DNA from: Proteromonas lacertae | Lineage: Eukaryota; Sar; Bigyra; Opalinata; Proteromonadidae | NCBI GenBank assembly: GCA_002245135.1 | Contig: NGBS01000292.1 | Coordinates: 248,001-312,000, forward strand | Direction: 5' to 3' | Length of the DNA stretch: 64,000 nucleotides | Part shown: positions 34,711 to 55,722 of the stretch, one piece after another | Position numbering within the stretch: the first letter of the stretch is position 1 | Layout: each line of letters starts with the position of its first letter | Notes under the pieces: model-generated | What the model was told of the DNA's origin: nothing | What the model saw: only the letters and a program-made list of their open reading frames with translations | Database searches by the model: none | Made by a program: the position numbers and the translations under genes

Positions 34711-34743
34711 ACTCATTTTTTAATTCTTGATTAAAAAATGAGT
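34711..34743 (+). promoter_or_regulatory. Perfect 14-bp inverted repeat over the Hsp70-like start codon
   Basis: Arms 34711..34724 (actcattttttaat) and 34730..34743 (attaaaaaatgagt) are exact reverse complements with a 5-nt loop (tcttg). The ATG at 34738 sits inside the 3' arm. If transcription starts upstream of 34711, the mRNA could fold its own start codon into a hairpin. Confidence 0.55.
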
Positions 34744-36267
34744 AATCCGGCAGCGATTGGTATCGATCTGGGTACTACATTCTCGAGTGTAGGTACCTTT
34801 AAAGCCAATAAGATCGAAATTATCGCTTTCCCTTCAGGTGAGAGAGTATTGCCTTCCCACGTGTATTTTGATCCTAAAGGTAAAGAAATAATCGTTGGTG
34901 AAGCTGCAAAATTCTCAGTGAAGAGTGTTGGACACACTATTTATGATTCTAAGAGATTTATTGGAGCGAAGTTTACTGATAAGTGTGTTCAAGATGATAT
35001 TAAGCATTGGCCATTTAAAGTAGTTGATGACAATGGTTATCCCAAAGTAGAAATGGAATATGATAATCAAGTCAGACGTTATTCACCAGAAGATATATCA
35101 ACCATTATATTAAAAGAAATTAAAAAAACAGCTGATGTGTTCATGGGAAAACCGTTAGATACACCAACCAAAGCAGTAATTACAGTTCCAGCCTATTTCA
35201 ATAACTCTCAAAGAGAATGTACCAAAAGAGCAGCAGAAAGTGCCAATTTACAAGTAGTCTCCATAATCAACGAACCAACAGCAGCAGCTATCGCATATGC
35301 TCATCAAAGAATCCAATCAGGCAATCAAGGTAACAAGCCAAGAAGAATATTGATATATGACTATGGTGGTGGTACTTTTGATGTATCTATCATCGAATTA
35401 AACGAGAAAACAAGACAAGTGAAAGTATTATGCAGTGATGGAGATGCACACTTAGGTGGTGAAGATATAGATAATCTATTAGTCACTCATTATGTTAATG
35501 AGTATAGAAATGAATCAGGATCTACTAAACCAATCGCTTTACCAAGAATGATCGCATTGAGAAAAGTATGTGAAAAATCAAAGTGTTTATTAAGTTCAAC
35601 TCCTGAGGTATTTGTAGATAGTGAATTCTTAGATGATGCTGGTGTAGATTGTAATTTAACAAGAGCAGCATTTGATGATATAATGAATAGCTTATTCAAT
35701 AAAACAATAGAAATAGTGAGAGCTGTATTGACAAAGAACAATATAGCAGTTACTACAATCGATGATATTGTTTGTGTTGGTGGAAGTTCAAGAATACCAA
35801 AAGTTCAGGAATTACTAAAGCAAACCTTCCCTAAGACGAATATATGTCAAGATATCAATGCTAATGAGGTTGTAGCATATGGTGCAACTATTGCAGCTAA
35901 TATCAGTGGATTTGATTTCAAAATTGTTGATGTTGTGTCTCACAGTCTATCTACAGATGTTGAAGGTGATAAAGTATATGTTATGATTCCTAAAAATACA
36001 CCTTTACCTTGCTCACATACAGAGAAGTTTGGTAATGCCTATGAAAATCAAACTCATATTGATGTGAAGGTGTTTGAAGGAGAAGGTGCTACTACTACAA
36101 CTAACCAATTATTAGCTGATTTCTCCATTGATGATATTACACCAAGTCCACCTAGAAGTGTTATTGTTAGAGTTACATTTTCTGTTGATACCAATGGTAT
36201 ATTGACTGTTACTGGTGAAGAAGAGAAGAGTGGAAGAGTTAAGAAGTTAGTGGTCAACTTAAAGTAG
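34738..36267 (+). CDS. Lid-less Hsp70-like protein (509 aa)
   Basis: An intron-free frame with a full Hsp70 ATPase domain ([56 protein letters not shown]) and the beta substrate-binding domain. It stops right after the beta sandwich ([11 protein letters not shown]), so the helical lid and EEVD are missing. The usual TPLSLG linker region is changed to [17 protein letters not shown], a feature shared with the protein at 57.6 kb. It should bind ATP, but client release and TPR co-chaperone contacts must differ. Relatives without lids are known in some protists. A perfect inverted repeat covers the start codon. It is divergent from the unknown gene at 34485. Confidence 0.9.
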
Positions 36268-36445: not shown

Positions 36446-37758
36446 ATGAGCAGCGCACACATAGAATTAGACATTAAATATGAAGCTCCCAGAGGCACTA
36501 GAGTCCAGGTATGCCATCAACTTCTTTATATGGTTAGGCTTATCTGAATTTACTGAAGGCTTGTTTAGGTGCAGGTATTTTTGGGTTGCCAATAGCTATG
36601 CATGATGTATATTAGTGTAAATTTATATTTTTTTAGTCTGGCATAGTCGAATCGGTAATTTTGATGATTGTAATTGCTATATGGGTGAGCTATTCATTAT
36701 CAAAACTGATTACAATAGAACGAACTGCAATCGTTGAAAGGCACACAGGCTTCAAAACAACCAACCTTCTCTCAGAAATCTGTTATCAAGCATTTGGTAA
36801 ATGGGGATCATATGTATTAGAAGCAACCGTCTCTCTCACAATGTTAGGAGTAGGTGTGGTATATATAACCACTTCAGCCGATTTAATTTCGCATTTACCT
36901 TGGGACAAAGCAGGATCAGATTTCCTATACAAAAATAAAGCCATGTTCGTACTATTTATTGGAATATTATTAATACCTTTAGTTTTATTACGTGACTGTG
37001 CTTCATTATCATTTGCGAGTATGCTAGGCAATGTAGCTATCATTGGTAGTTTATTGATTGTGTTTATCTATGGATTAGTGAATAATGATTTATCTCATAT
37101 GCACGATATACCCTATGTGAAAACATCATCAGCTGCATTATCTAATCTATTTGGTACTTTGATATTCTCATATGGAATAATATTTAATTTAATGCCAGTA
37201 CTACAAGATATGAAAGATAAAAAGCAATTTCCAATAGCCATGAATGGATCATTAGGAACTGCAGCTATATTATACATTATAGTGACAATATCACTGTGTG
37301 TCATCTATAATAATGTTCCTTCAGGAATAGCTGGTAATATCATACAGAATTTAGATAGTAATAATCCATGTTACTATGTATCAACAGTATTAGTGTCAAT
37401 GATGTGCATTTTTTCATTCCCATTAGCTGTATGTCCAGCAGTACAGATATTAGAACCAAAACCAAAGGATGATGATTGTGGATTCTTCACAAAAACACCT
37501 GGTAGAATTATATTGAGATTAATTGTGTTAATTATTGATTGTGGTTTAGGTGCTTTGATTCCTAGTTTTAATATAGCCGTTACATTGATTGGTGATGTTA
37601 CATTAACATTTGGTACATTTATATTGCCTCCTATTCTATATTTGAAGTTGAAAGGACATGATATGACTAAATTCCAAATTGGAGTTGAAATATTTTTCGT
37701 GTTATTGGGTGTTGCAACTATGGTGTTTGCAACAGTCAATTCTATTTTGTCGTTATAA
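36446..37758 (+). CDS. Amino acid/auxin permease-family transporter, copy 1
   Basis: Three exons (36446..36508, 36538..36606, 36637..37758; introns 29 and 30 nt) give 417 aa. The family start LNLLKACLGAGIFGLPIAMH is the conserved TM1 of AAAP transporters (SLC32/36/38). About 11 TM helices follow, including LGVGVVYITTSADLISHLPW and PLVLLRDCASLSFASMLGN. The conserved loop LEPKPKDDDCGFFT precedes the last TMs. Such proteins move neutral amino acids with H+ or Na+ at the plasma or vacuole membrane. The first two introns sit at the same places in all four copies in this window (after the N-terminal tail and after TM1). The N-terminal tail is short, cytosolic and unlike the other copies. Confidence 0.88.
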
Positions 37759-37920
37759 TCTTCTTAATCTTAACGTAAATTTATTCTTTTAAGATTAATA
37801 ATTAATTCATTTGATTTTAAGTGTGTATTTAAAAATTCTATAACTACTTTATACTATGTTAATATGAAACAAATAAAAAAATAAAAAATAGGCTTGACTA
37901 AATCAAGCTTTAGTTTTCCA

Positions 37921-37933
37921 CGGTTTCTACGTA
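37921..37933 (+). promoter_or_regulatory. Second copy of the 13-bp transporter-promoter motif
   Basis: cggtttctacgta ends 8 bp before the ATG of transporter copy 2 (37942). It matches the minus strand of 36387..36399 upstream of copy 1 exactly. A 13-base GC-containing match is unlikely by chance in so AT-rich a spacer. Confidence 0.45.
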
Positions 37934-37941
37934 AAACACAA

Positions 37942-39406
37942 ATGAGTAAAGAGCTTATTCTTCTTGAAGATGACATTAAAAAATCAACAAATTCTCAAGT
38001 ACATGCTTTCTTCTAACAATTCATAGGCTGCAATTAATTTAATGAAAACATGCTTGGGATCTGGTCTTTTAGCTTTGCCGATTTTGTTCCAAGAGGTATG
38101 CAATGAATATATATTTCCTTTGTAGTCTGGTATTGTTGAAAGTGTACTTATATCATCCATAATTGGTTTTTGGGTGTATAATTGTGCAACTAAATTAGTT
38201 AAAATACAATACTTACTTGTTGATCGATTTGATGATTATAAAACACATTCAATGTACTCAGAAATTTGTTATCAAGTATATCCACATTTTATTATTATAT
38301 TACAGGCATACGGTAAAGTAGGAGAGAAAATGTTTGACTTGATGACAAGTGTAACTTTAATTGGTATAGGTTTAGTTTACACTGTATAAATTAAAACAAT
38401 TAATTTAATCCAAATAGTTAACATCCAGTGAAATGTTATCTGCATTGCCATGGGATAAAATGCATTTAGATTTCATGACTAATCAGAATTATTGTATTAT
38501 TTTAGTGACATTACTACTAATTCCAGTCATATTGTTAAGAGATATGACTTCATTATCGTTTTCAAGCTTATTAGGAAATATTGCAATAATTAGCAGTATT
38601 GTTTTGGTGTTAATGTATAATTTTTTAAAATTAATATAATCATAAATAGATATGGATTAATCTATAATGATATGAATAACCTATTAGTTAATGTAAAATG
38701 GGTAGATAGTTCATTGAAAGGAATATCCAATTTATACGGGACATTGTTATATTCATTCGGAGTAATCTTCGTTGCACTACCAACAGTAGATGAGATGCAA
38801 ACTCCTGACGATTTCAGTAGAATATTATCCATTACCACCACATCTTCAGCTTTATTTTATGCAATATGTAACTCATTCCTCTATATATTGTTCCATAATG
38901 CTACTGGTGGCGTGAAAGGAAATATATTAGAGAATATGCATCCAGAATCTGTTTTTTATTATGTTGCTACAGTGTTAGTCTCATTGATGTGTGTATTTTC
39001 ATATCCTGTCACTGTTATGCCAGCTTTGCAATTATGTGAGCCAAAAAGTGATGAAAATGATCGTGGATTATTCACTCATAATTATAAGAAGATTCTATTT
39101 AGGATATCGATTGTTATTATTGCTTCAATAACTGCATTTTTCTTTCCTAGTTTTAATATCGTAGTTTCATTATATATCTTTTTGAAAACATTCTATTATT
39201 CAATATTATTTCTTTAATTTAATATTTTACTAGGTAATTTAACAATAACTCTTATTACATTTGTATTTCCTCCATTATTATATATTAAACTAAAAGGAGA
39301 AGATACTACAACCTCAGAGAAATATCATAATATAATTTTATCAATATTTGGACTTGCAAGTATGGTTTTTACAACAGTTACAGCAATAGTAACATTAAAA
39401 CATTAA
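37942..39406 (+). CDS. Amino acid/auxin permease-family transporter, copy 2 (contains an AT-AC intron)
   Basis: Seven exons (37942..37998, 38027..38095, 38126..38275, 38306..38383, 38418..38614, 38650..39173, 39231..39406) give 416 aa, matching copy 1 in length. TM1 is LMKTCLGSGLLALPILFQ; later LLLIPVILLRDMTSLSFSS and LCEPKSDENDRGLFT align with the other copies. It has four extra introns relative to copy 1. The last, 39174..39230, starts ATATCTTTTTG and ends TTTTAC. Only AT-AC removal restores FNIVVSLLGNLTITL, the same pattern as copies 3 and 4 (VVSLIGNVTL). It lies about 180 bp downstream of copy 1 in tandem. Confidence 0.88.
39174..39230 (+). other. U12-type AT-AC intron (transporter copy 2)
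   Basis: 5' site ATATCTTTTTG, branch site TTTCTTTAATTT, 3' end TATTTTAC, 57 nt. Without splicing the frame ends at TAA. AT-AC removal gives TTA|GGT|AAT (L-G-N), conserved in the paralogues. A GT-AG solution does not exist here. Confidence 0.88.
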
Positions 39407-39443
39407 ATATAGAATATATTATTATTATTAATTGAATTTTTCT

Positions 39444-42400
39444 TTATCTACTAAATAATTCAATATTATGAGAAAGATTTTCTACTTTTATTTTATACAA
39501 CTCGTATAAATATGGTAAATACTCATATATTTCTGATATTTCATCATGATTCAATTTCAAACGTGTTAAATCTATTGAATGTTTCTCTTTTATTGAAGAT
39601 AAAAGTGTGTGATATGTTGTATGTAAATCAAAAACTGTCTTTTCTATCACTCTAAATCTTTGATTTGGATATTTCAAACAAATATTCAACAACAAATATT
39701 CATATCCTTTTTTACTATCACTATTATTATATTCTTCACAAATATCCTCCAATAAATCTATTCATATAATAGAAATATAATTAATACTATATCTTTTCAT
39801 AATTTCGTTATATTCTTCTTCACTTTCAAAATGATATTTACTATTGTTTATCATTTCCTTTACTTTTTCTATCCATTTATAATTTGGATCATATAATTCT
39901 ACATCTTCCATTAACTCTTCGTCTATATCTCCCATGTTATTACCTGACACAATAATCTCTTTAACATTTGGATATTTTTTAATGTAAGTTAAAAGCTCTC
40001 TTATCTCATTAGATGTGAATTTATTATCTATAAATAATAATAATTACAATTATAATAAACTTTTTAAAACCAAAGATTTTATCACTATTTTTGGATTGAA
40101 TAGCATACATAAATTTGATATACAATTATCTGTTAAGGAATTATCTATAATACAAAATAAATATATTGAAATATATATACTTGATAAACATAGCATTTCC
40201 AGATTATGGAATGTATTAAATCTACTAGATATTATCTTGATTGCTAAATCAGTTAAACCACATTCTATTACATTATAAAATAATAGAATTACTAATAAAA
40301 TCTATTCTTATAAAATTATTAATATTCTTTGAATTAAAAAGATACTCCACTCCTTTATCAGTAATACAATTTCCTAATTGAATTATTATAATTAAAATAT
40401 ACTATTGATATTCAACATATTAATGTATGGTAAATTATCTAATGATTTTGATAAATATTTACAGCTAATTGCAGTTAAATTATTATCACCAACATTTATA
40501 AACTGTAAGTTGGACATACAATACAAATTCAAACATATTATTTTCATTGATTCATCTGTTAAATTTGTTTTCTGTAATTCTAAATTTTTTAAATTATGAA
40601 AAGAATCTGGTAATATTTTAAATCCTTTGAAATTTAATTTATTATCTATTTATTATTATGCTATATATATAATACAATTAAGATTGAATTCATTTAATCT
40701 CTTTGAATAAATTATATCACATAAATATTCTACTCCATCATCTGAAATATCATTTATACCTACATATAATCCCTCTAATCTTGACAGTATTGGAAAATAT
40801 TTAGACAAACCTCTTACTCCTTCATTTGTTATTCTATTGCCATTTACACCGAATGATTTAAGATTTGGTAGATGAGGTAATAAGTTACATAAATTATTTA
40901 AACCTTTGTCATTCAGATTATTGTCTATGAAGAATCGTATTTAATAAAATAACATATATACATCCAACGCCAAGTACTGTTATTGATAATGATTTAGGAA
41001 TAGATAATATCTCATTCAAATGTTCTACATCATCATTTCCTATCTCATTATCTATTAAACTAAAGATGAAAAGATATACAATTCATAAATATATTTCTGA
41101 GATTTAGTAAACTCATTAATTTTTTCATTAACATGCAAAATGAATAAGAATTTAATTGGCATCCACACAAACTAATTTCCTTTAGATTTTGACAAATTAA
41201 TATTGCATTAGAAAAACATTCTATACCAATTTCTGTAAAACTATTATTTGACATATCCAATTTTATTAACTTGTTTAAATAATGTAGGTTAAGCGATATA
41301 TACTTTAAACCACAATCATCTATATTTATTTCATATAAACTAAGTTCTGCTAAATTTGTCAATATGCTGAATCTATTACTTATTTCTTTTATTCCTTCAT
41401 TGCCTATATTGTTTTTATCAAGACATAACTGCTGTAAATACTTTAAATACGATAATTGTGAAGCAAGTTCTATAGCTCCTACAGTATTGAATCTATTATC
41501 TAAAAAAATAAAATATATTTATATTAATATACTCATTAATGATAAAATTTCTAAATAAACAACATTTCTTAGATTCTTACTTAACTCAATAACTCCAGAA
41601 TCATCAATATAATTATCTATTCAAATGAATATATTATAATATATACTATCCAATATAAGTTCTATTAAATACATACAACTATTCATTTGTCTAATTAATA
41701 AAGGAATAATGGATGATGATAAATTATCATCTCTAAAACATATTGTACGTAGTTGATATGCTTCAGACAATCCATCTAATATCAAATTCACTTTTTCATC
41801 ATTCAATCCACAATCTAAAAATAGACTATAAATATACATTGAAAATTAATTGTGATTATTCTTTTCAGATTTTTAATATAATAGCTTATGAAACAGCAGT
41901 CTTCAATAGTCAATCTCTTACCTATGTCAATAAAATAAAAATTTCTATACCTTTTGCTTCTATGTTTAGTGTATTTCCTATGCATTTACAATACTTCAGT
42001 CTTGAGTAATCATTTTCACAATCAATCATTTTCATCACTTTACTACCAATTCCATAATTCATTGCTATAATACATAAAAAGTTGAAAATTATTTCATCCC
42101 TTGTTCTATTGAAAGTATTTGCCACATCTTCCAATAAACCTATTTCAAATATTATCATGAAAAACAAGTATACCACAACTATCAACAACATATAACATTA
42201 CTCTTTCATTTGAATAACAGTCTTCTGTCTTTAATAAATTATATACTTCACTTTTACTAATAACTATTTAAATGAAATGATAATAATATCAATATATACA
42301 TTCTGAATCTACTTCTTTTATTTTATCCAAAAGATTAGGAATCTTTGATGAATCGATTGGATTTCTACTAATTTCCAGTTTAATTTTGTATGGTAATTGC

Positions 42401-45260
42401 TGAATACTCTCCAACAACACTTCACACCCCTTTTCTGTCATTCTGTTGCCTAATTGATATATAAATAAATAAAATACCTTTCAAATCTATCGATTCTAAT
42501 AATGGTAGAAGATGAAGTGAATGAGCAAATGATATTATTCCACTATCATCTATATAATTATTACATAATGTGATTCTTTTCAATTCAGACAAATAACTCA
42601 TGTTTTGTAGAAAGTATTTAAATCCAGCAATACTTATATCATTCTCTATTTTTAGAAAATATATAAAAGATTTACTGTTAATGTTAAATTCTTCAAGATT
42701 TTGCTAGTACGCTAAAATTTTTGCATAATACAGTAAATATATCATCTGTTATTTCACAGTCTAAATAATATCAGAAGAAATAAATACTATTAATTATTAG
42801 ATTCTTCAATGATCTTAAAAGTCTAATTGATTCGATCAATTCTTTAAACAATGATAGACAATTATGAATATCATCGAAAGCTAATGTTGTCAAATTTGTG
42901 ACATAACGTAAATTGTCTCTTATCGCTTTCAACCCTAATATTCCGCACCCACAATCTATATAAAATATAAACTCAAATAATAAGCAAACTTTGAAAACTG
43001 ATTTGCTCTAGTTTTCTAATGTATTTGAAAGAATTGGCAATTGATATCACTCCTTCATCTCCAATTGTTATTAAAAAAAAAATAAAAGTTTTCAAATTTG
43101 ATAAATATGGTAAAGCTTTTGAAAATTCCAATATTCCTTTTGAAGTAATAGAGTTTCCTATAAAAAATGCATTTGATTGAATAATATACTATAAATTCCT
43201 ATTATTTCAAGTTTTGTGAATCTTGTTAAAGCTTTGCTCAGCTTAATTAATACATTGTCACTTAGTTTGTTCTGAGAAATATTTAACCAATAATAATTTA
43301 GGACAATATTGTAAAGCATCACATAATATTTCTATATCATTATCATCAAGATTCTGATCTATGAAAATGGTAATGAAGAAAAATACTTTCAAGATTAATT
43401 CCATAATTATTCTGTATTCCTGAAAATATTTTATTCTGACTTCCTTTTAGTTTTGTTATATTCATTATTGATAGTTTATAAGCAGGGTATAGTGAGAGTG
43501 CAAAACCAAACAATATTCCAAAGAAATAATTCCTTGGATTATTCATTACACGATATGTATGGTTTGTCATAATATCTACAATTGATTAAAAAAGAATTTC
43601 TATACTAATATTCTTACTTAGTTGTTTATATATATAATGATTATCTATAATGTACTGACTTGTCTTCAACATTTCAAAAGCATCATTACTAATATTTTTG
43701 AATGAAAATTTCAATGGAATTGATTTGTTTTCATAATTATATAATAATAGTTTCACACTTTCATGGTTTAAAGATATTCCACATAAACTCAGTTTTTCTA
43801 ACTTTGGCATTTTGTACATGTATCTATGAATATATTTAACTGATTTATCACTCAATTTATTATCTAAAATATGTATTAAAAAAACTACATTATACAAGAT
43901 AAATACAACTTTGATAGTTCATTAAATGAGTTAGAATAACACAAAAATATAATAATATCATTGTCTTTAAGATGAGTGAAAGAGATTTTGAGAGATTTTA
44001 AATATGGCATATGTGACAAACCTATTGCAAATTCTTTCATTTTCTTATGTAAATTTATACTTTCTAAATAAATATAATAATTAATTAAATATACTGGACA
44101 TATTCAATTGTTCTAAACACGGAAACATTGATTCAGTTGGAATAAATCTTTTCAATTCTATGTTATACATGTTTAGTATTTTCAACTTTTGAATATAACT
44201 ATAATCTATATCTGATAGATGTTGTGTATCATCAACACTCATATTGGATAGATTTAGTTGAAATGGCTTTTCAGAATGCAGATAAAACTTCACTTTAAAA
44301 CTATTATCTTTCTTTATCAATAAATCTATTAATTCCTTATTATCTTTATTTAACCAACTAATATTTAACAAATAGTAAAGATATTTAATTTATTGTAAGA
44401 ATTAAAGTAGTGAATCATTTCCATTAAGTTTTCTAAACAGAATTACAATGCATATATACTTTTGTTTGTTATTGTTTTGTCAAATATAATTGAATCTTTT
44501 ATTAAATAATTATTTGAAATTAAATTGATAACAGAATGGAACATCGATTGCAAATATATCAATTATATCATTTTCTTCTATCATCTCTTTCATCTTCTTC
44601 TTTAAATGATTATAAATCTCTTCTATTGTTGGTCTTTTGTTTGGATCATTATTACAACATTTTCCATATAATTTGTGGTAATTCGAAGTGTTTCCATTGT
44701 AATTTATATGCAATATAGGTGATTTTGAGAATAAAATATAATGTAATAATACTCCTAGACTGAATATATCACTTTTATTACAGATTTCTTTGTTTTGTAT
44801 AACTTCTGGTGATGTATAAAATAAATCTTCTAGATCACATGATTCTATAGGATTCATTTCATATTCACAGGGATTACTTACTATATAATTACCATCATCT
44901 GTTATTAAGATATTTGAAGGTTTGATTCTTCCATGAATTAAACCAATTTTGTGTAATAATCTTAATTGATTTACTATTTGATTAAACATCTTATTTATGG
45001 TATTTTCATCAAAACTATCTACTCCTTCAATTGATCCATTTTTATAATAAGGTAATACTATTATCGATATAATCTTCGTACATTGCAACTATTGCAAAAA
45101 AATAGGAGTTTCTAGAGAGGATATTAACATAATTGAATTTATCTATAAAAATAATAAAATATATTATACATATGAAAGTTGAATTGGAATTGATTGTTCT
45201 TCTAAATCATATATTTTATATACTAGCCTGGTTAAAATTCTTTTCTTCCACAATATAAGT
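39444..45260 (-). pseudogene. Kinase-like LRR locus B (large, exon-modular, frame broken in places)
   Basis: A minus-strand locus of about 5.8 kb. The 5' end codes a kinase-like C-lobe (44510..45088). HGRIKPSNILITDDGNYIV replaces HRDLKPxN...DFG, with the catalytic Asp lost and DFG absent, while LFYTSPEVI and KSDIFSLGVLLHYILF are retained. Then some 15-20 short exons code LRRs (pattern LxxLxLxxNxIxxxG), ending SHNIELFSR. Introns I could place are phase 1, x|gtat...tag|AT, as in gene A. Frame breaks occur near 45100 (T7 run), after 44510 and near 44372, so I cannot derive one intact protein. It may be a decaying family member, or a real gene blurred by errors or unplaced introns. Exon order beyond the kinase part was not fully solved. 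Confidence 0.55.
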
Positions 45261-45564
45261 ATATGAGTATTTGGTTGATTTTAGCTTAGATTTTAACTAT
45301 TTGTACATTTATATGAAATATACTTTAAAACCAAAAATTTCACAAAGTTCCATATCCGCATCTGACTATATATATACATATAACATATCAATACCTCAAC
45401 ACTATTAAAGATCTATAAACCAAATTTTTCATAATTAGTAAATCCATTAATAATGAGAAAATGAAAAGATTTCTAATAGAAGATTTGATATAGAAATCAA
45501 GCCTAGATTCATTTAAAAATCAAATTAATCAACAACAAAAGAATATTAGAAAAAATAAAATATT

Positions 45565-46701
45565 TTAAAAACCTCTCACTGTAAGAATATGATCAATATC
45601 CTTCCAAAATTGTTGACTTACTTGAGCATCGTAAGATCTGCTATTTCTGTTTATAGATATGATTTTCACTTTCCATCCTTTCACAGCTGGAGGAGCAGGC
45701 TCAGTATTCCAATTGAAATAGAATCCAGCTCTGTCACTAAACACATCAACTGGATTCTTCCACACATAATCTTCAAATTGCCAAGTTTCACCACATGTAA
45801 CTACAGCTATTACATTCTCCCAATCGCCTCGTTTCAATACTAAAGGAGAGTCGACTAATCTAAATGTTCGTTCTTTATCTTTCTGTTTCCTAGTTATAAC
45901 TATCTCATTTGTATAAGCTTCTATTCTAGCTTCTTCTGGACTTATAAATTGATTCTCAACTAATAATTTCTTGGCATTTTTCAATGTCACTAAACCCAAC
46001 TCAGGAGCTGGGAATAATATTATTGGAACTATATTAGAAGTATTTATTGAGGAAGATGAATAGGAAGTTGAGTTTAATTTTTGTCGTTTTGGTCTTTGTT
46101 GTTCTAAAGAACCTTCTAAATCCAAATTTATATTTTCCATCTGCAAATGTTCCTTCCACTGTGCATTTGTCTTTTCTTGTATTTTAGAAGGAGGTGCTGA
46201 AGCTATTGCTCTACTAATATGATCATAATATGCACTTACTTCTTTTAAATCATCATTTCCTTTTAAAATGTTGTTTGTGTCAATTGTACTTATTTGAGAT
46301 TCTAAAATACGATCAATTATTGGCTTGGTTTGTTGTGGTTCGACTTCTTGTGCTAGTTCTACAGCAGCTGATGTTGTTAACACGGATTTATCAATATATT
46401 CACTATCTTTACTAATTCCTTTCAAATAATTCACTAAACTCGTCACTTCTAGTGAATTTAAACATGTAAAACCTTTTTCTTTGGCTTCACGATAGTAATC
46501 AGAATATTTCAGAGATGGGTTTTTGATATGCTCATTAATTGTAAAAAATATATCTTTTAATTGCACAAATCCATTACTTGATTTAAAATTTGTAACAGAA
46601 TCGCCTTTATATGCTTTTCCATTCAATACTATATTTTCACCATCGGCTTTCATTTCCTTATTTCCATTGACACAGTACTTTATTGTTCCTAAAAGATCCA
46701 T
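45565..46701 (-). CDS. CDC73: Cdc73/parafibromin, PAF1 complex subunit
   Basis: A single-exon 378-aa frame. The N-terminus (MDLLGTIKYCVNGNKEMKA, then YSDYYREAKEKGFTCL) matches the Cdc73 N-terminal domain. The C-terminal Ras-like domain runs IILFPAPELGLVTLKNAKKL, then FRLVDSPLVLKRGDWENVIA, WQFEDYVW, PVDVF and QQFWKDIDHIL, the order in human parafibromin. It is shorter than the human protein because the middle region is reduced to a Ser/Asn-rich linker (about residues 150-230). PAF1C travels with RNA polymerase II and promotes H2B ubiquitination and H3K4/K36 methylation. It starts 92 bp from the divergent ARM-repeat gene; the spacer holds TTTGGCTTGACTTGACTTGA-like repeats. Confidence 0.93.
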   Translation of the reverse strand: MDLLGTIKYCVNGNKEMKADGENIVLNGKAYKGDSVTNFKSSNGFVQLKDIFFTINEHIKNPSLKYSDYYREAKEKGFTCLNSLEVTSLVNYLKGISKDSEYIDKSVLTTSAAVELAQEVEPQQTKPIIDRILESQISTIDTNNILKGNDDLKEVSAYYDHISRAIASAPPSKIQEKTNAQWKEHLQMENINLDLEGSLEQQRPKRQKLNSTSYSSSSINTSNIVPIILFPAPELGLVTLKNAKKLLVENQFISPEEARIEAYTNEIVITRKQKDKERTFRLVDSPLVLKRGDWENVIAVVTCGETWQFEDYVWKNPVDVFSDRAGFYFNWNTEPAPPAVKGWKVKIISINRNSRSYDAQVSQQFWKDIDHILTVRGF

Positions 46702-46793
46702 TTATTTGCAGGCTTTTAATAACAAAAATCAAAAAAATGAATTAGTTTGGCTTGACTTGACTTGAAAGAGTTGTTTTATTTTTTGTTTGAAAA

Positions 46794-47903
46794 ATGAGTG
46801 ATTCAGACCAAAGTATAACCAAACAGGCAAGTTTCAAAGCGTGTGACTCTGAAGCTTTAGATGAAGCTCAAAAGAAAAGGATGAACAACTACATTGAGTA
46901 TTAAAGGATATTTATTACTGTTATTAATAGCACATTGGTTAGATCTACTGATTTATACAAACCTGACATGCCAAATTCCATTATGGCTGATTTGACTCAA
47001 TTAATCAACAACTCTAAACTCTTGTTCTACATTGTTTTATGCAATATGTCAAGAAACCAAAATAATGAAAAGCCTTAATAGATGTATAGTTTGTATTTAT
47101 AACTGTTTAGATATTACTATTAAAAAATGCCCCATTCGAGTATTATGACTCAGCATTGCATTTGCTTTTGATAATGATGAATGAACCAGATACTCATAAA
47201 TTCTATTTAGCACAACGAAACTGTTTCAATGTCTTGTTAAATTTTTTACCTTATAATTCAACCACTTTTACTCAAGATCAGATTGTACATTTAGCAGTAG
47301 AAGCTTCTAATCTATTAAACTTATTATTAGCTGAAAATAGGAGAATGGCAAGACAAAATTATTTCAATGCCCCAAGTTTACCAGAACGGCTGTATAAATT
47401 CTTGCAATGGTCAATATCATTATATCCAACACAATACACTGAAAATACAGTACTTACATACGATATCAAAAGTAATTCACCAACATCGTCCTCATCTTCT
47501 TCATCATCCTCTACTCAACATTTATATAATACATATGACTTATGTAAAACCAGTTTAGAATTAATCAAAGAATCAGCTGCAGAAAGAGTAAGATATCAAG
47601 GTATAATATATAAATATAATACACATAAATAGATATTTTATGTAATAAAGACTACAATATATTATTATTACTATTAAAGCAATGTCTATACCCTATTCTC
47701 TCTACACACCCTCTAGAAGATATCCAATCATCTTCATTCATATCATCTCCTTATGTTATATATCTATTAGACTGCTTAAGGTCATTGATAGTCTTTAATA
47801 ATAAAGTCATTAACCATATAATAAGTAATGATAATAATAATAATATTTTATTATCGTTATATTGTGAATTATTGAAATTATATGTTTTATTCAATTATAA
47901 TTC

Positions 47904-47940
<37 letters not shown>

Positions 47941-50681
47941 TAGCAATGAAAATGAATCACTTTCTGTTAAGCCAATATATTATAGTTTATTACATTATAT
48001 GTCATTATTACCATATGATAATTCAACAATTGAAAGAATATTGTTAGAATATCAAGAGAAATATAATGTTTCATTCACTAATACATTAATAAAGCAATAT
48101 TTCCCAAGTGTTACTGATAATATTATATATTTACAATTAGAGTTATATTTTCATGTATATATAATATATATATATATTGTTATTATTATTAAATATAGAT
48201 ATTTGAATCAATATCTAAAGATCTGTATAAAATTAAAATTCATCATTATGAAGAAGACACTGTAGTACAAGCACTTACTGTATAATATATATTTATTATT
48301 ATATATTTAGTCTATTTATAATATAATGTCTAATGAATATGATGCATTCTATTTCTTCTATATCTCCTACAGTGGTACAAGACTGCTAATACAGTGTCTT
48401 AATGTATTAGATGAAACGGTAATATTAAAAGCTTGTCAATTAACCTATTTATATTTATACAATTATACTGATGGAATTGTTCCTTTTATAGAAAGAGGTG
48501 GTTTATATGCATTAAAGGAATGTATAAATGATTATGATCCTCAAATCAGAATCGAGTCTTTAAAAGCTTTATCTGTGTTTTATAACATTGAGAATGAGAT
48601 TGATATTAAGAAATATGGAATATTGAAGGAATTATGTGAAATTATTGATTCTTATCCAAGTGAAGATATATCTTTTTATTATTATTATATCATTATATTT
48701 TATAATTATTTTTCTTTAATTTTTATTTGTTTTACTGTCCATTAGAGATATTTGATACAACTGTTCAAATCCTAATAATTGCAGTAAAGACTAATGTTTT
48801 TAATCAAGTATATATAAATATATATATTATATTTAATAGGATGAATTATCATGTAATGGAAGATTAGATAAACTATGTCATATCTTAAAAACAGAATTAG
48901 AAAATATAATAAACCATCAACCATCAATATCCTTATATATATATATATATATATAAATTGTTATATTTCCTTTATTATTTTTTACTCATTACCTTTATCA
49001 CCTGAAGAAGTATTAGATGTAATAACACATATATTATTATGTATAACCAATACAATATATCACAACACCAGAAACCAAAATATCATTTACAGTACTGGAA
49101 TAATTGAATATTGTTGGAATATTAAGAATAAAATAAGTGATACTTTTTGTGATAATATATTGACATTATTAATCAATTGTATTGATACAAATAAGACTGT
49201 TCAAAATGCTTTTGGTGGTGAGGAAATAAAGAATGATATATTATATATTTTGGATGAAAAAAATAGAAAAAGTAAAAGAGCTTTAGGTTATATAATGATT
49301 TCACATTTATGATATCTTTTTATTATTATTATAATGTTATTATTATAATTATTATTTTCTTTAATTTAAAAGTTGTAATTGGAATAGTGAAAAAATCCAA
49401 CAACTTTATACTTGTGAAGAAATATTAAAGTATTTCAAAATTGACATTAATTACTGTAACTATGATCCTGAATCTCCAATCTCTATCTATAACCCAACAC
49501 TCTCTGCATTATATGCGTTTATTAATCTTTCTCTAAATAATAATAAATTAAAACAATCGATTAAGAATTATCCATCTATCAGTAGAACTTTGATTGACTT
49601 TTTGACTGTTGATAGTTATGATATTCGAAAGAATACAATATTTTGTTTAAGTAATTTGATAGATGATAATGAGGATCTAGCAGATCAGTATATATATATA
49701 TATATATATAATATTATTTATTTATTAGATTGTATAATTTATCAATAATTCCAAAGTTAATTTATAATATCAATGACAATAATGATGATCCACTATCTAC
49801 AAAGGCATATCAAGTATTAGAAAGAATGAGCAAACAGACTATTATCTATATAATCAGTTCATTATATTATATGAATAAAAATGAAATTAATAATAATTTC
49901 AGTAGTAATTTAGTCAATCAAATTGAGAATGAATTTAAAGATAAAATATTGAAGTTGAATGATGATGATAAAGCTAATAAACCACATGTTGAGACTAATA
50001 AAGAGTTTATATTGTCTTATGTTAGTATTTTGAATGGATTATTATATACCAATTCTACTTCTAGAAAGTTCTTTTTATCAAAATTTATATCCTTTTTTTA
50101 GAAATTTCTGAGAAATTTCTTTAATTTTTTTTGTAAGGAATTGCACCGTTATTATATTTAATAATGAAAACTGATAATGAATTAAGAGATATTATTTGTT
50201 TAATATTAACTAATTCATCCCTTGATAGAAGTACATCTCTTCAAAACGAAAGTGTAAAAGAAGGCTTACTAACAGTATTTGAAGAGTTATTTGTCATTTT
50301 ATCGAAGAAGAGTGAAAGTGATAAAAATATGAAAGAAGAACATTATATCTATCCTTTTGATGTTTTAACGAATTATACATTAAATAATAGTTCCGTGTCA
50401 TATACTATTATGAATTGGAAAAATGATTTTTATATGAAATTGTTAAAGTATTGTCATAGTAGTAATAAAGAATATTCAGTAATATGTGTAGAGTTGTTAA
50501 TTTCGATTTTGGAACAAGTATTTTAATATTTATTTATTTATTTATTTAGTCTAAAGCTGGTGCTATAGCATCTGGAATTTCAGGAACAAAAACATGTTTG
50601 AATGAAATTGTAAAATATGATTATCTGAGCGATGCTTTAAGAGCAAGAGCAAAACAGTGTATTAGGGACTTAAAACTGTAG
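46794..50681 (+). CDS. Armadillo-type helical repeat protein with four minor-type introns
   Basis: More than a dozen exons from ATG 46794 to TAG 50679. The protein is all-helical with ARM-like periodicity: LCNMSRNQNN(E)KALIDILLLKN, then FIERGGLYALKECINDYDPQ, IRIESLKALSVFYNIE, FLSKFGIAPLLYLIMKTDN and YTLNNSSVSYTIMNWKNDF. It ends LRARAKQCIRDLKL. A homology-level name is not possible for me; UNC45/SHE4-like or another ARM scaffold are options. A Ser run lies near 47500. One base is missing in the AAAA run at about 47068 (the frame resumes as ALIDILL). Besides GT-AG introns it holds four introns starting ATATC (48668, 48926, 49312, 50087), three of which contain in-frame stops. Confidence 0.7.
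47904..47942 (+). repeat. TA microsatellite inside an intron
   Basis: A GTATATA... intron of the ARM-repeat gene that is almost pure (TA)n and ends in AAAATAG. Similar TA-run introns occur at 107..167, 13298..13320, 16339..16376, 49689..49728 and elsewhere, so this is a general intron style here. Confidence 0.7.
48668..48735 (+). other. U12-type AT-AC intron (ARM gene)
   Basis: 5' ATATCTTTTTA, branch TTTTCTTTAATTTT, 3' TTTGTTTTAC, 68 nt, phase 0. Removal joins SYPSED to CPLEIFDTTVQIL. The unspliced frame ends at TAG within 30 codons. Confidence 0.88.
48926..48985 (+). other. U12-type AT-AC intron (ARM gene)
   Basis: 5' ATATCCTTATA, branch ATTTCCTTTATT, 3' TTTTTTAC, 60 nt, phase 0. Joins INHQPS to SLPLSPEEVLDV. 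The length is a multiple of three and open, so retention would not break the frame, but the insert would be a TA-run sequence. Confidence 0.7.
49312..49372 (+). other. U12-type AT-AG intron (ARM gene)
   Basis: 5' ATATCTTTTTA, branch TTTTCTTTAATTT, 3' TTAAAAG, 61 nt, phase 2. Joins MISHL-C to CNWNSEKIQQLY. Unspliced, the frame hits TGA at once. Confidence 0.82.
50087..50136 (+). other. Candidate U12-type AT-AA intron (ARM gene)
   Basis: 5' ATATCCTTTTT (full consensus), branch ATTTCTTTAATTTT, 3' TTTTGTAA, 50 nt, phase 0. AT-AA removal gives SKFGIAPLLYLI, a normal ARM motif. Ending one base later at AG puts the frame into a stop. Confidence 0.7.
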
Positions 50682-50852
50682 TTCTAATTAAAAATGAATA
50701 TTATTAGAATGTAAATTGTTTGTTGTTGTTGAGATATTCCACAAGTTTGGAAAAATGAGCTTGGCTCGGCTTGAAGTCAAATACGTTGGTGAGATTAAAT
50801 TGATTTTAAAGACATTCATATTGAAATATAAATTAATAAATAGTGTAATTTA

Positions 50853-52431
50853 ATGAGTACTGTAGATTCAAAACTTTCAGATACTCAATCTTCAAGTGAG
50901 TTAGTATTTTTACTTATTACTACTGTTTTTAGCATGCTGAAGATTTAGTTTTACTACAGGAAGAAATAGATGCACAGCAAAAGAATGCAAAAGTAGCACC
51001 ATAATATCCTTTTTATTTAGTGTATTTATGAAAGATAGCCTTAATAAATATACTTATTTAAATTATCCAATGGTTTATGTATTTTTATACATGTTCATGG
51101 TATTTACAAATCACATTATGATACATCAATATAACACAAGTGAATGTAGAGGTCCTAGAGCATATTTAGTGGGCCAGATAGTACTAGGCTATCTAATAAT
51201 GTTTTTATATGCATGGACTTTTATTGGTCCTGTTCCATTCTCTTCATTTACATATTATTTAGCATTGTGGGCAGTTCATAGTGTGTTATCAGTGTTTTGG
51301 TTTATAATGGGAATAGTATGGGAAGTAAAACAGAAAACATGTGTATAAATTATTAATAATTATAAATTTCATATAGAGAGACGATGCTCCTGGTGTATTT
51401 TGGTTGTGTTTTGTTGAATTACTAATTTTTGCTTTAGAAGTCGTACTTTTAATCTTATCCTACATATTCAGTTCAATTGATGACTGTTTAGAAAGAGTGA
51501 AAGAAGAAGATGCAATAATTAAAGACTTTGAAGAACAATTCGAAGATGATAAACGTCTAATTGAGGAAAAAGAAGAAGAAAAAGAGAAACAAGCCATCAA
51601 ACCAGTATTTCAATTTGATGTTATTGAGAATAAACAACCTGTTGCTGGAAGAAATGCAAAAGCATCAGCAAAAACAATTAAATCAGTTAATGGTAGTGTT
51701 ACTCGTAGTAGAGCTGTACAATCAATTCCAACGAAGAGATCAGTGGGTGATGAAAGAAAAACGCAATCAGTTACAAAAAGATCATCCAGTGGAGAACATA
51801 AAAGTTCAAGTGGAAAAAGTGGTGGAAAAGGCGGAAAATCTAGTAGTGAAGAAGAGAAGAAAGGATCTAGTACAACGTCTTCAGATAAAGGTGAGAAAGT
51901 ATTTGGTGAAGCTAAGAAATGTATATATATATATATAATCATTTTATTATATTGATTTAAATATAGCATCAAGTGATTCTAAAAGTGGTTCAAAAAGTGA
52001 ATCAAAGACAGATTCAAAGAGTGAATCTAAAAGCACTTCATCTGATGAAAGAAAGAGTATTTACATTCATATTTTTATTTATTATTTTAATAGAAGATTC
52101 ATCAAGTGATTCACATAGCGATTCTCATAATAGAAAGAGTTCTTCTTCAGAGAATAAGTCGGGTGAAAGAAAAAGTGAGTCATCTACTACATCTAGTTCA
52201 AGTAAAGGAGGTGCAAATCATTCTACAAGTGGTAGTGGAAGTGGAAGTGGAAATGCTGAAGGAACAAAAGCAAAGAGTCATTCAAGTGAAAGTGAAGGTG
52301 AAAGAAAGAGTGGATCATCAAGTAGTGGTAAAGAAGATAGAAAGAGTGAATCATCTGGTAGTAGAAGTGGAGAAGAGAAGAATGATGACGATCCACCACC
52401 ACCACCACCACCTCCAGAAGAAGAAGAATAA
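50853..52431 (+). CDS. Four-TM protein with Ser/Lys/Glu-rich and poly-Pro tail
   Basis: Six exons. ATG 50853 (MSTVDSKLSDTQSSSELHAE) was chosen because it joins the rest in frame; an upstream ATG at 50755 does not. Four hydrophobic spans follow: YPMVYVFLYMFMVFTNHIMI, AYLVGQIVLGYLIMFLYAWT, ALWAVHSVLSVFWFIMGIVW and CFVELLIFALEVVLLILSYI. Then comes a coiled-coil-like charged segment and about 200 residues of Ser/Gly/Lys/Glu repeats ending in DDDPPPPPPPPEEEE. The four-span order is tetraspan-like, but I see no CCG motif, so tetraspanin is not supported. A Pro run after a long disordered tail often binds profilin, WW or SH3 domains. One intron (51004..51053) is AT-AC. Confidence 0.72.
51004..51053 (+). 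other. U12-type AT-AC intron (four-TM gene)
   Basis: 5' ATATCCTTTTT, branch ATAGCCTTAATA (CCTTAAT core), 3' AAATATAC, 50 nt, phase 2. Joins KVAP-Y to YLNYPMVYVFL. Unspliced, the frame ends at TAA immediately. Confidence 0.85.
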
Positions 52432-52666
52432 ATCAATAATGTTACTATTTTATTTTTATATAAATAATATTAATATATCTATTGTATTTATGGATTTGGT
52501 TAAATAATGAAAATATATTCGTTATTACAGTATTTTTCGTTAAAAGAATAATGTTTTGCCGATTGTTTATTAGAAATTCGAAGTCTGGTGAAAAGCGAAT
52601 GTCTATTTACAAAAGTAGAGTAACGAATATAATTTTGGAACGGACATTTAAAAAACACAAATAAAC

Positions 52667-54025
52667 ATGGAACCTCTTCCTACAGTGATGTCTAAAATGA
52701 TTCCTAAATCTAATAATGCACAGGTATTGCATTAGTGACTTATCTACCTAGGTTATATTCAATTTGGTGAAATGCTGTTTAGGTTCAGGTGTTCTTGGTT
52801 TGCCAATCGTTTTTGCTGAAGTATTTTTCTAATTTGTGCCTAAATGATTATTTTTTGAATAGACTGGTATTGTAGAAAGCATTTTATTGACCATTCTTAT
52901 TGCTTATTGGACTTATAGTTGTTCAATGAAAATAATAAAAGTAAATAGTTTAAAAAAGCCAAAGACTGATGAATATGTAACACATTCAGATTATAGTGAA
53001 TGTTGTTATCAATGTTATGGTAAAATAGGTGTATATATCTTTGAAGCAAGTACAACAATATCACTATTGGATGTAGGAGTAGTATATACATTAACAGCAG
53101 AAGGAATGTTGTCTAGATTACCTTGGTCCAAAATCGGAATACCATATTTTGAACATAACAGATTAATGATGATATTAATAATAGTAGCCGTTTTAATACC
53201 CGTTAATTTATTAAGAGATATGACATCATTAAGTTGGGCAAGTATGTTGGGAAACGTTTGTATTATAATCTGTTTATTTATTGTATTAATGTATAATAAT
53301 ATAAAAAAATAAATTATTATTATTATTAATAGTTATGGTTTCTTCACAGTTGATTTGAGTTTAATATTCAGTAATATTCCATGGATGACTTCATCATTAA
53401 GTGGATTTTCAAGACTCTTTGGAACAATCATTTATGCATATAGTATAGTGTTAGTAACATTACCAACAGTTGCTGAAATGGAAGAACCACATCAATATTC
53501 ATTAATGGCAATAATATCCTTATTATTGTCATCATTTTTCTATATTATATTTACATCTGTATTAGTTATGCTATATACTAATGATAATGAAGGAGTAAAG
53601 AACAATATATTATACAATATAAATGAAGATTCAATTTGGTATTATATTTCTACTTTAATGATTTCTGTAATGGCAATTTTTTCATTCCCTGTTGCTGTTA
53701 TGCCTGCGCTTCAACTAATAGAACCAAAAAGTAATGATAAGGATAAAGGATTATTCACTATAACTCCATTGAAAATAGTGTTTAGAATTGCAATTACTAT
53801 TGGAGTAGCTGCTGTAGCTTATTTATTTCCTAATTTTAATATTGTCATTTCGTTGCTAGGAAATATCATTTTTGCATTAGTTAATTTCATTATACCCCGT
53901 TGTTGTTAATTAAGATGAATAGTAAGAATATGGATTTGTTAGATAGATGTGTAAATTTTATTTTAATAATATTGGGAGTAGTTGCTGCAATATATACTAC
54001 TGTAACTACAATAAGTACAATGTAG
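52667..54025 (+). CDS. Amino acid/auxin permease-family transporter, copy 3
   Basis: Four exons (52667..52723, 52752..52820, 52863..53290, 53333..54025). TM1 is LVKCCLGSGVLGLPIVFA; further spans include LLDVGVVYTLTAEGMLSRLP, LIPVNLLRDMTSLSWASML and the loop LIEPKSNDKDKGLFT. The reading frame breaks near 53900: FIIPRCC-stop in frame, but one extra base in the CCCC run restores IIPPLLLIKMNSKNMDLL and the last TM, ending TAG at 54023. The break is probably a homopolymer error, since the rest is intact and closely related to copy 4. No intron exists at the position of the AT-AC intron of copy 2. Confidence 0.82.
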
Positions 54026-54150
54026 TAGTAATTCTATTTTTTCCTTTTTCTTATTAAAGATGTTTTTTTGATGATTAAAAATAATATTTAAACATTACAT
54101 CAATACTCCTAATTGATGTCCTTCATAACATTAAAAAACACATTTTTCGC

Positions 54151-55722
54151 ATGAATGACGAGTGCCCCAAAAAAATGGATCAAGAAGAAAAGGTGGATAT
54201 TCCTCCTTTACAAGAGCCAATTGTGACTGCTGAAGTTACAGTCGAGGTACAAGACCCTGTGCCTGATTGAACCTGTGGTTGTTGAGCCAGTAACGACTGA
54301 GCCAATCAAACAGGTGAAATCAGTTTCTTTGGATGAACCCATTGAAAAGAAAAAAATAGCTAAGAAAAGTACAAACAGTCAAGTATGTAATCTGTTTTTC
54401 TATTTTAAAATTAGGTTTTAATCAATCTAGTGAAGGTCTGTGTTGGATCGGGAGTGTTAGGATTGCCTATTGTTATTCAAGAAGTATAATTCTGGTTTAG
54501 TATCTTTTTTTATATAGTCTGGTCTACTTGAAAGTGTGATAATTATAGCAGCAATTGCCTATTGGACTTATGTTTGTTCTAAAATCTTAATTAAAGCAGA
54601 CAAACTTATTTTACACAGAATTCCAGGAGATGGAAGTTATGAAGCAAGATCTTTATATTCCGAGTTGGGATATAAAGCATTCGGTAAAGTAGGTGTTTAT
54701 ATCTACGAAATATGCACTACTGTAAGCTTACTAGGTGTTGGTGTTGTATATATATTAACCTCATCTGGAATGATGGCGAAATTACCTTGGGATAAGATCG
54801 GAGTGCCTTATTTCTATGATAATCATTACATTATGATATTATTTGTAGCTATTTTATTAATCCCTGTGAATTTATTGAGAGATATGACATCATTGAGTTG
54901 GGCAAGTATGTTAGGTAACTTTGCAATATCTGCAAGTCTTTTAACTGTATTAATCTATGGATTAGTAACAGCAAATTACACTGACATATTGGCAAATGTA
55001 AACTGGGTTAAACCTACATTTAATGGAGTTGCAAATTTGTTTGGAACTACTATTTATGCATTTTCAATGATGTTGATTGTATTACCAACTATTGTATAAA
55101 TATTTATTATTATTATTGTTATATATTAGCAAGAAATGGAACATCCAGATAAGTTTCAAGTATTGAGTAGTATCTCATTAACAATATCAACATTATTCTA
55201 CATTGTATTTGGTTGTTTGTTAGTCATTTTATACTACAACAGTGAAGGTATATATATATATCATATTATTATATATATTATTATGTAGCTGGTGTTGAAA
55301 GTAATATATTATACAATATACCACATAATAATGTATGTTATTGGTTAACTACGATATTCATATCATTAATGTGTATATTAACATATCCAGTAGCTGTAAT
55401 GCCTGCACTACAAATATTAGAACCAAAGGAGAATGAGAATGACAAAGGTTTGTTCACTATAACTCCATTTAAGATCATATTTAGAATAGTGATAGTTGCA
55501 GGAATTGCTGGTATTGCATTGTTATTTCCAACTTTCAATGTGGTTGTTTCTTTGATTGGTAATGTTACTTTAGGAACAGTATCGTTCATTATGCCTCCTT
55601 TATTGTATATAAAGTTGAATAAACATAATACACGAGCTGATTATGTGTATAATGGTGGTATGGCATTTTTTGGATTTGTTGCTGCTTGTTTTGCTACTTT
55701 TGTAACTATATATTTTATGTAA
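54151..55722 (+). CDS. Amino acid/auxin permease-family transporter, copy 4
   Basis: Five exons (54151..54382, 54415..54483, 54518..55093, 55130..55247, 55289..55722), about 475 aa. It has the same core as copy 3: LVKVCVGSGVLGLPIVIQ, LLGVGVVYILTSSGMMAKLP, ILEPKENENDKGLFT and LLFPTFNVVVSLIGNVTL. It differs by a longer acidic, Pro/Val/Glu-rich N-terminus (EEKVDIPPLQEPIVTAEVT), as in many vacuolar or SLC36-type members. In that tail the frame shifts by one near 54270 (PVPD, TGA, then EPVVVEPV). Exon 1 is 232 nt, exactly one base over a whole number of codons, which again suggests a single-base error. Tandem with copy 3. Confidence 0.82.

What the first reader, a model, noticed from the sequence alone, without database searches (positions are those of the whole stretch)
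39174..51053. High density of minor-spliceosome (U12-type) AT-AC introns
Introns at 39174..39230, 48668..48735, 48926..48985 and 51004..51053 begin ATATC[CT]TT and end AC; 49312..49372 begins the same way and ends AG. They carry U12-like branch sites (TTTCTTTAATT, TTTCCTTTATT, GCCTTAATA) 8-16 nt from the end. All but one would stop translation if retained, and removal restores conserved residues (for example SLLGN in the transporter). Established knowledge: ATATCCTT plus TTCCTTAAC defines U12 introns, which are well under 1% of introns in most species and absent from many protists. Six or seven in 64 kb is exceptional, and points to a living minor spliceosome in a genome with very short introns.
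Basis: partly seen in the sequence, partly recalled or inferred. Interest (0 to 1): 0.92.

Follow-up and report, generated by a model that had tools for sequence, protein, structure and literature searches.

The report
Minor-spliceosome introns in an unidentified protist
An unidentified, AT-rich single-celled eukaryote carries a rare class of gene inserts and the parts of a second, minor splicing machine to remove them, and that machine's catalytic RNA appears to have changed the very letters that normally grip the start of those inserts.

Summary
Removing them restores open frames and, in the transporter, a continuous Pfam domain. The same class occurs across the 50.2-Mb genome: pattern ATATCYTT...TTTCYTTWA...AC, 216 hits against 90 for the reversed control. 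The GT-AG equivalent shows no excess (5 against 16). U11, U12 and U6atac snRNA genes and the U11/U12-59K protein PDCD7 are present; U4atac was not found. The U11 and U12 pairing stretches are intact and fit these introns. The one detected U6atac is not standard: its 5' splice site box AAAGGA reads AGCCGA. The 'exceptional density' is local: four of the six introns sit in one gene. The new points are a minor intron set that looks almost purely AT-initial and a U6atac whose classical 5' splice site pairing is reduced. No RNA evidence for any minor junction was available.

The parts
37942..39406 (+). amino acid transporter gene (PF01490), 5 GT-AG introns and 1 AT-AC intron
   Evidence: 416-aa open frame after splicing; PF01490 over residues 14-411, AT-AC junction after residue 358
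39174..39230 (+). AT-AC minor intron, 57 nt, phase 1; restores SLLGN
   Evidence: paralogs in the window read TLIGD (36661-37758) and SLLGN (53355-53909) without interruption
46794..50681 (+). large gene of 1108 aa with no Pfam family and no database relative found; 8 GT-AG introns, 4 minor-type introns and one unresolved intron (47073-47110)
48668..48735 (+). AT-AC minor intron, 68 nt, phase 0
48927..48985 (+). AT-AC minor intron, 59 nt, phase 0
49312..49372 (+). AT-AG minor-type intron, 61 nt, phase 2
50087..50136 (+).
50853..51955 (+). membrane-protein-like gene, 5' part only (the model runs into what looks like a further, unmodelled intron); contains one AT-AC intron; no Pfam family
51004..51053 (+). 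AT-AC minor intron, 50 nt, phase 2, branch site GCCTTAATA

Best explanation
These are real U12-type introns, removed by a functioning minor spliceosome. Proposed mechanism: the U11 5' end AAAAAGGG pairs with intron positions +4 onward, UC(U/C)UUUUU. U12, through GUAAGGAAA, pairs with the branch site UUUCUUUAAY and bulges the branch-point A, roughly 10-20 nt before a 3' end preceded by a T run and ending AC (occasionally AG or AA). In both duplexes the second C of the classical CC is often U and is carried by a G-U wobble, as expected from mutation pressure in a 27% GC genome. U6atac then replaces U11 at the 5' splice site; here it keeps only the A and G that pair with +4U and +5C, and the rest of the canonical pairing box has changed. 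Shown: the introns' anatomy, their restoration of frames and conserved domains, their genome-wide recurrence, and the snRNA and PDCD7 genes. Inferred: that they are spliced in the cell, the pairings, and how U6atac copes.
For: Open frames and a PF01490 domain restored in the window. I scanned 9 joined proteins, 2 from the window and 7 that I chose as conserved-looking out of 24 printed: 8 have a Pfam hit and in 7 of these a domain above its cut-off runs across the AT-AC junction (L063 only just, 22.8 against 22 bits; L047 below every cut-off). TTLL9 (L062): the joined reading ...LQVWLYR/SGFCRF... matches unbroken YRSGF-type sequence in 4 of the 6 homologs printed, the other two having A or D for S; the 57-nt AT-AC boundary splits that serine codon. 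Genome-wide pattern 216 against 90 control; 28 of 37 strict hits join frames against 555 of 2841 background. U11, U12, U6atac and PDCD7 genes. A shared CCCATAA 59-64 nt upstream of all three snRNA genes. The six minor introns are 50-68 nt; the 15 GT-AG introns modelled in the same genes are 28-44 nt, without overlap.
Against: No RNA-level evidence for any minor junction. U4atac was not found by Rfam or by three patterns. The only U6atac detected lacks the classical AAGGA box. AT-AG combinations such as 49312-49372 are described as disfavoured (PMC3584512 passage). The large gene has no detectable homolog, so its four minor junctions rest on frame alone. 9 of 37 strict hits did not join long frames. 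The relative gene P0070 showed an unspliced, apparently genomic reading, not a spliced transcript. The window's own transporter was not tried in the protein search that might have shown a spliced relative; the last of three searches went to TTLL9.
Confidence: 0.93

Rival explanations
1. The U6atac gene found is a divergent or decayed copy. The working U6atac, with a normal AAGGA box, is missing from the assembly or too diverged for the searches. The introns are then ordinary U12-type introns of a standard minor spliceosome.
For: Assembly is in 1181 contigs; U4atac is also not found, so snRNA genes can be missed; the 5' splice sites would still pair with a normal box (-5.9 and -7.1 kcal/mol).
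Against: The copy scores 81.5 bits over the full model, with an intact core, a 3' stem-loop with few unpaired positions and a T run, shares the upstream CCCATAA with U11 and U12, and its locus has the composition of the others. No second exact GAGARAAGGTTAGC core was found and none of the 12 one-mismatch places looks like U6atac by eye.
Confidence: 0.35
2. The AT-AC introns are spliced by the major spliceosome as U2-type AT-AC introns.
For: Known in principle: AT-AC termini are not exclusive to U12-type introns (PMC3584512, passage). The U6atac change weakens one minor-specific contact.
Against: The U12-type branch site and ATATCY 5' site fit U12 and U11 and are not those of the GT-AG introns of the same genes: 0 of 15 start GTATCYTT and 1 of 15 holds TTTCYTT. 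Minor snRNAs and PDCD7 are present.
Confidence: 0.04
3. The segments are not introns but coding insertions, frameshift errors or pseudogene damage.
For: 48668-48735 has no in-frame stop; the large gene has one unresolved junction at 47073-47110.
Against: Same two motifs and AC end in unrelated genes genome-wide, with frames and domains joined exactly.
Confidence: 0.02

Closest known systems
U12-type introns and minor spliceosome of animals and plants
   Same: ATATC 5' site, U12-complementary branch site close to the 3' end, AT-AC termini, U11, U12, U6atac, PDCD7 (U11/U12-59K)
   Different: No detectable GT-AG subtype by pattern, where human has about 26% AT-AC (PMC10639083 section 24); +6 T or C; branch mostly TTTCTTTAAY where the classical one is TTCCTTAAC (recalled; also in the finding); U6atac box AGCCGA instead of AAAGGA
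Blastocystis ST1 minor introns (PMC5608401 passages; PMC10639083 section 24)
   Same: Protist with short introns and an AT-AC-rich minor set (77%, 196 of 253)
   Different: Blastocystis is reported with all four snRNAs and seven specific proteins, and minor introns averaging just under 42 bp; here 50-75 nt within the pattern searched, U4atac not found, U6atac box changed. Blastocystis' U6atac box was not compared here
Physarum polycephalum minor introns (PMC10639083 section 24; PMC2846911 passages)
   Same: Protist with a living minor system
   Different: Physarum has the highest known density; here the pattern excess is about 126 in 50 Mb. Details of Physarum's motifs were not read
Cyanophora paradoxa (PMC10639083 section 24)
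   Same: Minor introns with possibly transformed machinery
   Different: There only U11 gave a significant hit; here U11, U12 and U6atac do

Membership tests
U12-type intron | 5' splice site RTATCCTT, one C may be T (PMC2846911 passage) | tested here: met
   6 of 6 window introns begin ATATC[CT]TT
U12-type intron | U12-complementary branch site near the 3' splice site | tested here: met
   U12 GUAAGGAAA present; TTTCYTTAAY 10-20 nt from AC in 28 frame-joined introns, a distance partly fixed by the pattern; duplex -5.3 to -9.2 kcal/mol for the TTTCYTT forms tried, -5.1 for the 51004 form
U12-type intron | AT-AC or GT-AG termini | tested here: met
   4 of 6 AT-AC; the other two are AT-AG (a disfavoured combination, PMC3584512 passage) and AT-AA
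Minor spliceosome | U11 snRNA | tested here: met
   63.4 bits, cut-off 39, 5' AAAAAGGGC intact; the control genomes rang in 1 of 14 at E up to 1, 0 over the cut-off
Minor spliceosome | U12 snRNA | tested here: met
   56.9 bits, cut-off 53, controls 0 of 14
Minor spliceosome | U6atac snRNA | tested here: met
   81.5 bits, cut-off 33, controls 0 of 14
Minor spliceosome | U6atac AAGGAGAGA box pairing with the 5' intron end (called characteristic in PMC8283771, figure legend) | tested here: not met
   AGCCGAGAGA in the only copy detected; best duplex of the 13-nt stretch -3.5 and -2.8 kcal/mol in another register, against -5.9 and -7.1 for the Rfam consensus; with 28 nt the two forms differ little
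Minor spliceosome | U4atac snRNA | tested here: inconclusive
   Rfam (no match even at E 10) and three patterns found none
Minor spliceosome | U11/U12-specific proteins | tested here: met
   PDCD7 only, 70.1 bits, cut-off 27; RNPC3, SNRNP48, SNRNP35, ZCRB1, SNRNP25, ZMAT5 not searched
Minor spliceosome | Splicing of these introns in RNA | not testable with these tools
   No reads available

The most novel reading that the evidence does not exclude
[quoted passage not shown] 5' splice site identity would then be set by U11 and its proteins, with U6atac engaging through GA plus protein contacts or a shifted GAGA register. The intron set would have responded by becoming almost purely AT-initial, with a relaxed +6.
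Probability: 0.35. Interest if true: 0.82.

Novelty: new variant of a known kind. Interest (0 to 1): 0.6.

Why it matters
It adds an unidentified protist with compact introns to those that keep minor splicing, with two intron classes that, in the genes modelled, are separated even by length. If the AGCCGA U6atac is the working one, it is a natural test of how much snRNA-5' splice site pairing a spliceosome needs.

Tried and rejected
U4atac: Rfam at E 0.001 and at E 10 and three complementarity or promoter patterns. In one search nothing rang in the 14 control genomes either; at E 10 11 of the 14 rang below the cut-off, so neither setting is informative as a control. The three hits are nearly one sequence on three contigs and lie inside open frames of 316-537 codons: coding, rejected. 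ATATCGGC 5' sites, predicted if introns had followed the U6atac change: no TATCGGC in the window; three TATCGG matches, judged by eye not to start introns. Not searched genome-wide.

Transcript evidence: the 1108-aa gene gave no hit among 7991 scored candidates. TTLL9 gave a 91% relative, P0070, whose frame runs into the intron (RYHFFCF, i.e. RTAYCAYTTY if the exon's AG is kept), so it looks genomic, not spliced. P0001, a 95% relative of the window's WD-repeat gene 21276-23704, runs across the place of a GT-AG intron, by splicing or for lack of the intron, and says nothing on minor introns.

Recent copying of introns inside the large gene: 48668 and 49312 rank 5th of 496 pairs, not outliers; rejected. 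Organism: no close named relative among the 14 hits or the 120 listed of 3105; not identified. A full intron count and the minor:major ratio were not obtained.

Full report
Check. The window (27.1% GC) lies in a 50.2-Mb, 1181-contig assembly. I read the sequence around every listed segment and modelled three genes by hand. The transporter gene (37942-39406) gives a 416-aa open frame after removing five GT-AG introns and the AT-AC intron 39174-39230. PF01490 matches residues 14-411 across the AT-AC junction, which follows residue 358. The large gene (46794-50681) gives 1108 codons without a stop after removing 13 introns, four of them minor-type. One of the 13, 47073-47110, has no recognisable 5' splice site; I placed it only to keep frame. 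The third gene contains 51004-51053. The three models hold 15 GT-AG introns of 28-44 nt and six minor-type of 50-68 nt (the third gene was modelled only to 51955, and the unresolved intron is left out of both counts).

Chance. The 5' 8-mer by itself is near expectation. The full pattern ATATCYTTN{14,44}TTTCYTTWAN{6,18}AC occurs 216 times in the genome against 90 for the reversed pattern. These counts include overlapping AC ends and near-identical contigs, only the first places were listed, and the pattern catches three of the window's six minor introns, so they are a rough guide. I examined the 30 loci supplied with that search and 20 more that I picked by eye from the rest of its list because they looked like the strict motif; this choice favours strict motifs, not frames. 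Together with the window they hold 45 non-redundant hits, 37 of the strict form. Of the 37, 28 join open frames of at least 25 codons on both sides (555 of 2841 for background ATAT...AC segments), and 25 at least 40 codons (293 of 2841). Of the other 8 hits, 3 join at least 25. Nine strict hits did not join long frames and are unexplained: chance, short exons or untranslated regions.

Conserved genes. Nine joined translations were scanned against Pfam: two from the window and seven that I chose as conserved-looking out of the 24 printed. Eight gave a hit; in seven a domain above its cut-off runs through the junction: transporter, exonuclease (L016), aldo-keto reductase (L023), lipid kinase (L038), Na/H exchanger (L048), tubulin ligase (L062) and, barely, oxidoreductase (L063). 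L047 (WD40) is below all cut-offs and the third window gene has no family. For TTLL9 (L062) the split serine codon at the junction matches the serine of P0016, P0017, P0018 and P0047; P0026 has alanine and P0015 aspartate (six of the 120 listed homologs were printed). In a 91% relative the frame runs into an intron beginning RTAYCAYTTY, which suggests that the intron is older than the split and that +6 is A there (R because the first base cannot be told from the protein).

Machinery. U6atac, U12 and three near-identical U11 genes pass Rfam's cut-offs. All three types carry CCCATAA 59-64 nt upstream; some 7-mer shared at such offsets arose in 8 of 2000 shuffles. PDCD7 is found, split by an intron. 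U4atac was not found.

Fit of parts. U11 AAAAAGGG pairs with UCYUUUUU from +4; among the 28 frame-joined introns, T at the unselected positions +10 to +13 is 86, 79, 75 and 61%, and at -5 to -3 is 93, 93 and 89%. U12 GUAAGGAAA pairs with the branch site. Positions +1 to +9 apart from the Y at +6, most of the branch site, the AC end and the range of branch distances are fixed by the search pattern or filter, so no frequency is claimed there. Minor introns starting GTATCYTT, with that branch site and ending AG, show no excess (5 against 16 control), so the set looks almost purely AT-initial; GT-initial introns with other motifs would be missed.

The anomaly. The U6atac stretch AUGAAAGGAGAGAAGG of the Rfam consensus reads AUGAGCCGAGAGAAGG here. 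In the classical register only +4U-A and +5C-G remain at the start, then two mismatches (register recalled from the field, consistent with the AAGGA box). RNAduplex for the 13-nt stretch gives -3.5 and -2.8 kcal/mol in a shifted register against -5.9 and -7.1 for the consensus with ATATCTTTTTTT and ATATCCTTTTTT. With a longer 28-nt stretch the two U6atac forms give similar best energies for these sites (-6.7 both here; -6.8 and -7.1 consensus), so the energy contrast depends on the stretch and register allowed. One exact core copy was found; the 12 one-mismatch places do not look like U6atac. One paper calls the AAGGAGAGA box interaction characteristic of the minor spliceosome (PMC8283771, figure legend).

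Literature seen. PMC10639083: outline with abstract, passages, sections 24 and 30. PMC8283771, PMC5608401, PMC2846911, PMC3584512: passages only. Other papers: search listings with starts of abstracts. None of the passages I read mentioned a U6atac with a changed 5' splice site box; I did not search the subject exhaustively.

Noticed in passing
window 47073-47110: Intron-like frame break in the large gene ending TTTAG but with no GT, GC or AT 5' splice site that I could place at a usable phase; unexplained.
   Followed up: partly
window 36661-55500: Several Aa_trans-like transporter paralogs; those at 36661-37758 and 53355-53909 read through the position of the 39174 minor intron without one.
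   Followed up: partly
L066:1441, L002 (- strand) 1709, L001:1437: Shared CCCATAA about 60 nt upstream of U11, U12 and U6atac genes, a likely snRNA promoter element.
   Followed up: partly
window 21276-23704: WD-repeat (dynein intermediate chain/WDR63-like) gene with a 95% identical relative, continuous across its GT-AG intron, in an unnamed public assembly (P0001).
   Followed up: partly
window 39400-46000: Minus-strand stretches that look like leucine-rich-repeat and kinase-like genes (by eye, from the ORF list).
   Followed up: no
window 18520-20460, 34738-36267, 57595-59142: Three Hsp70-like open frames within 41 kb.
   Followed up: no
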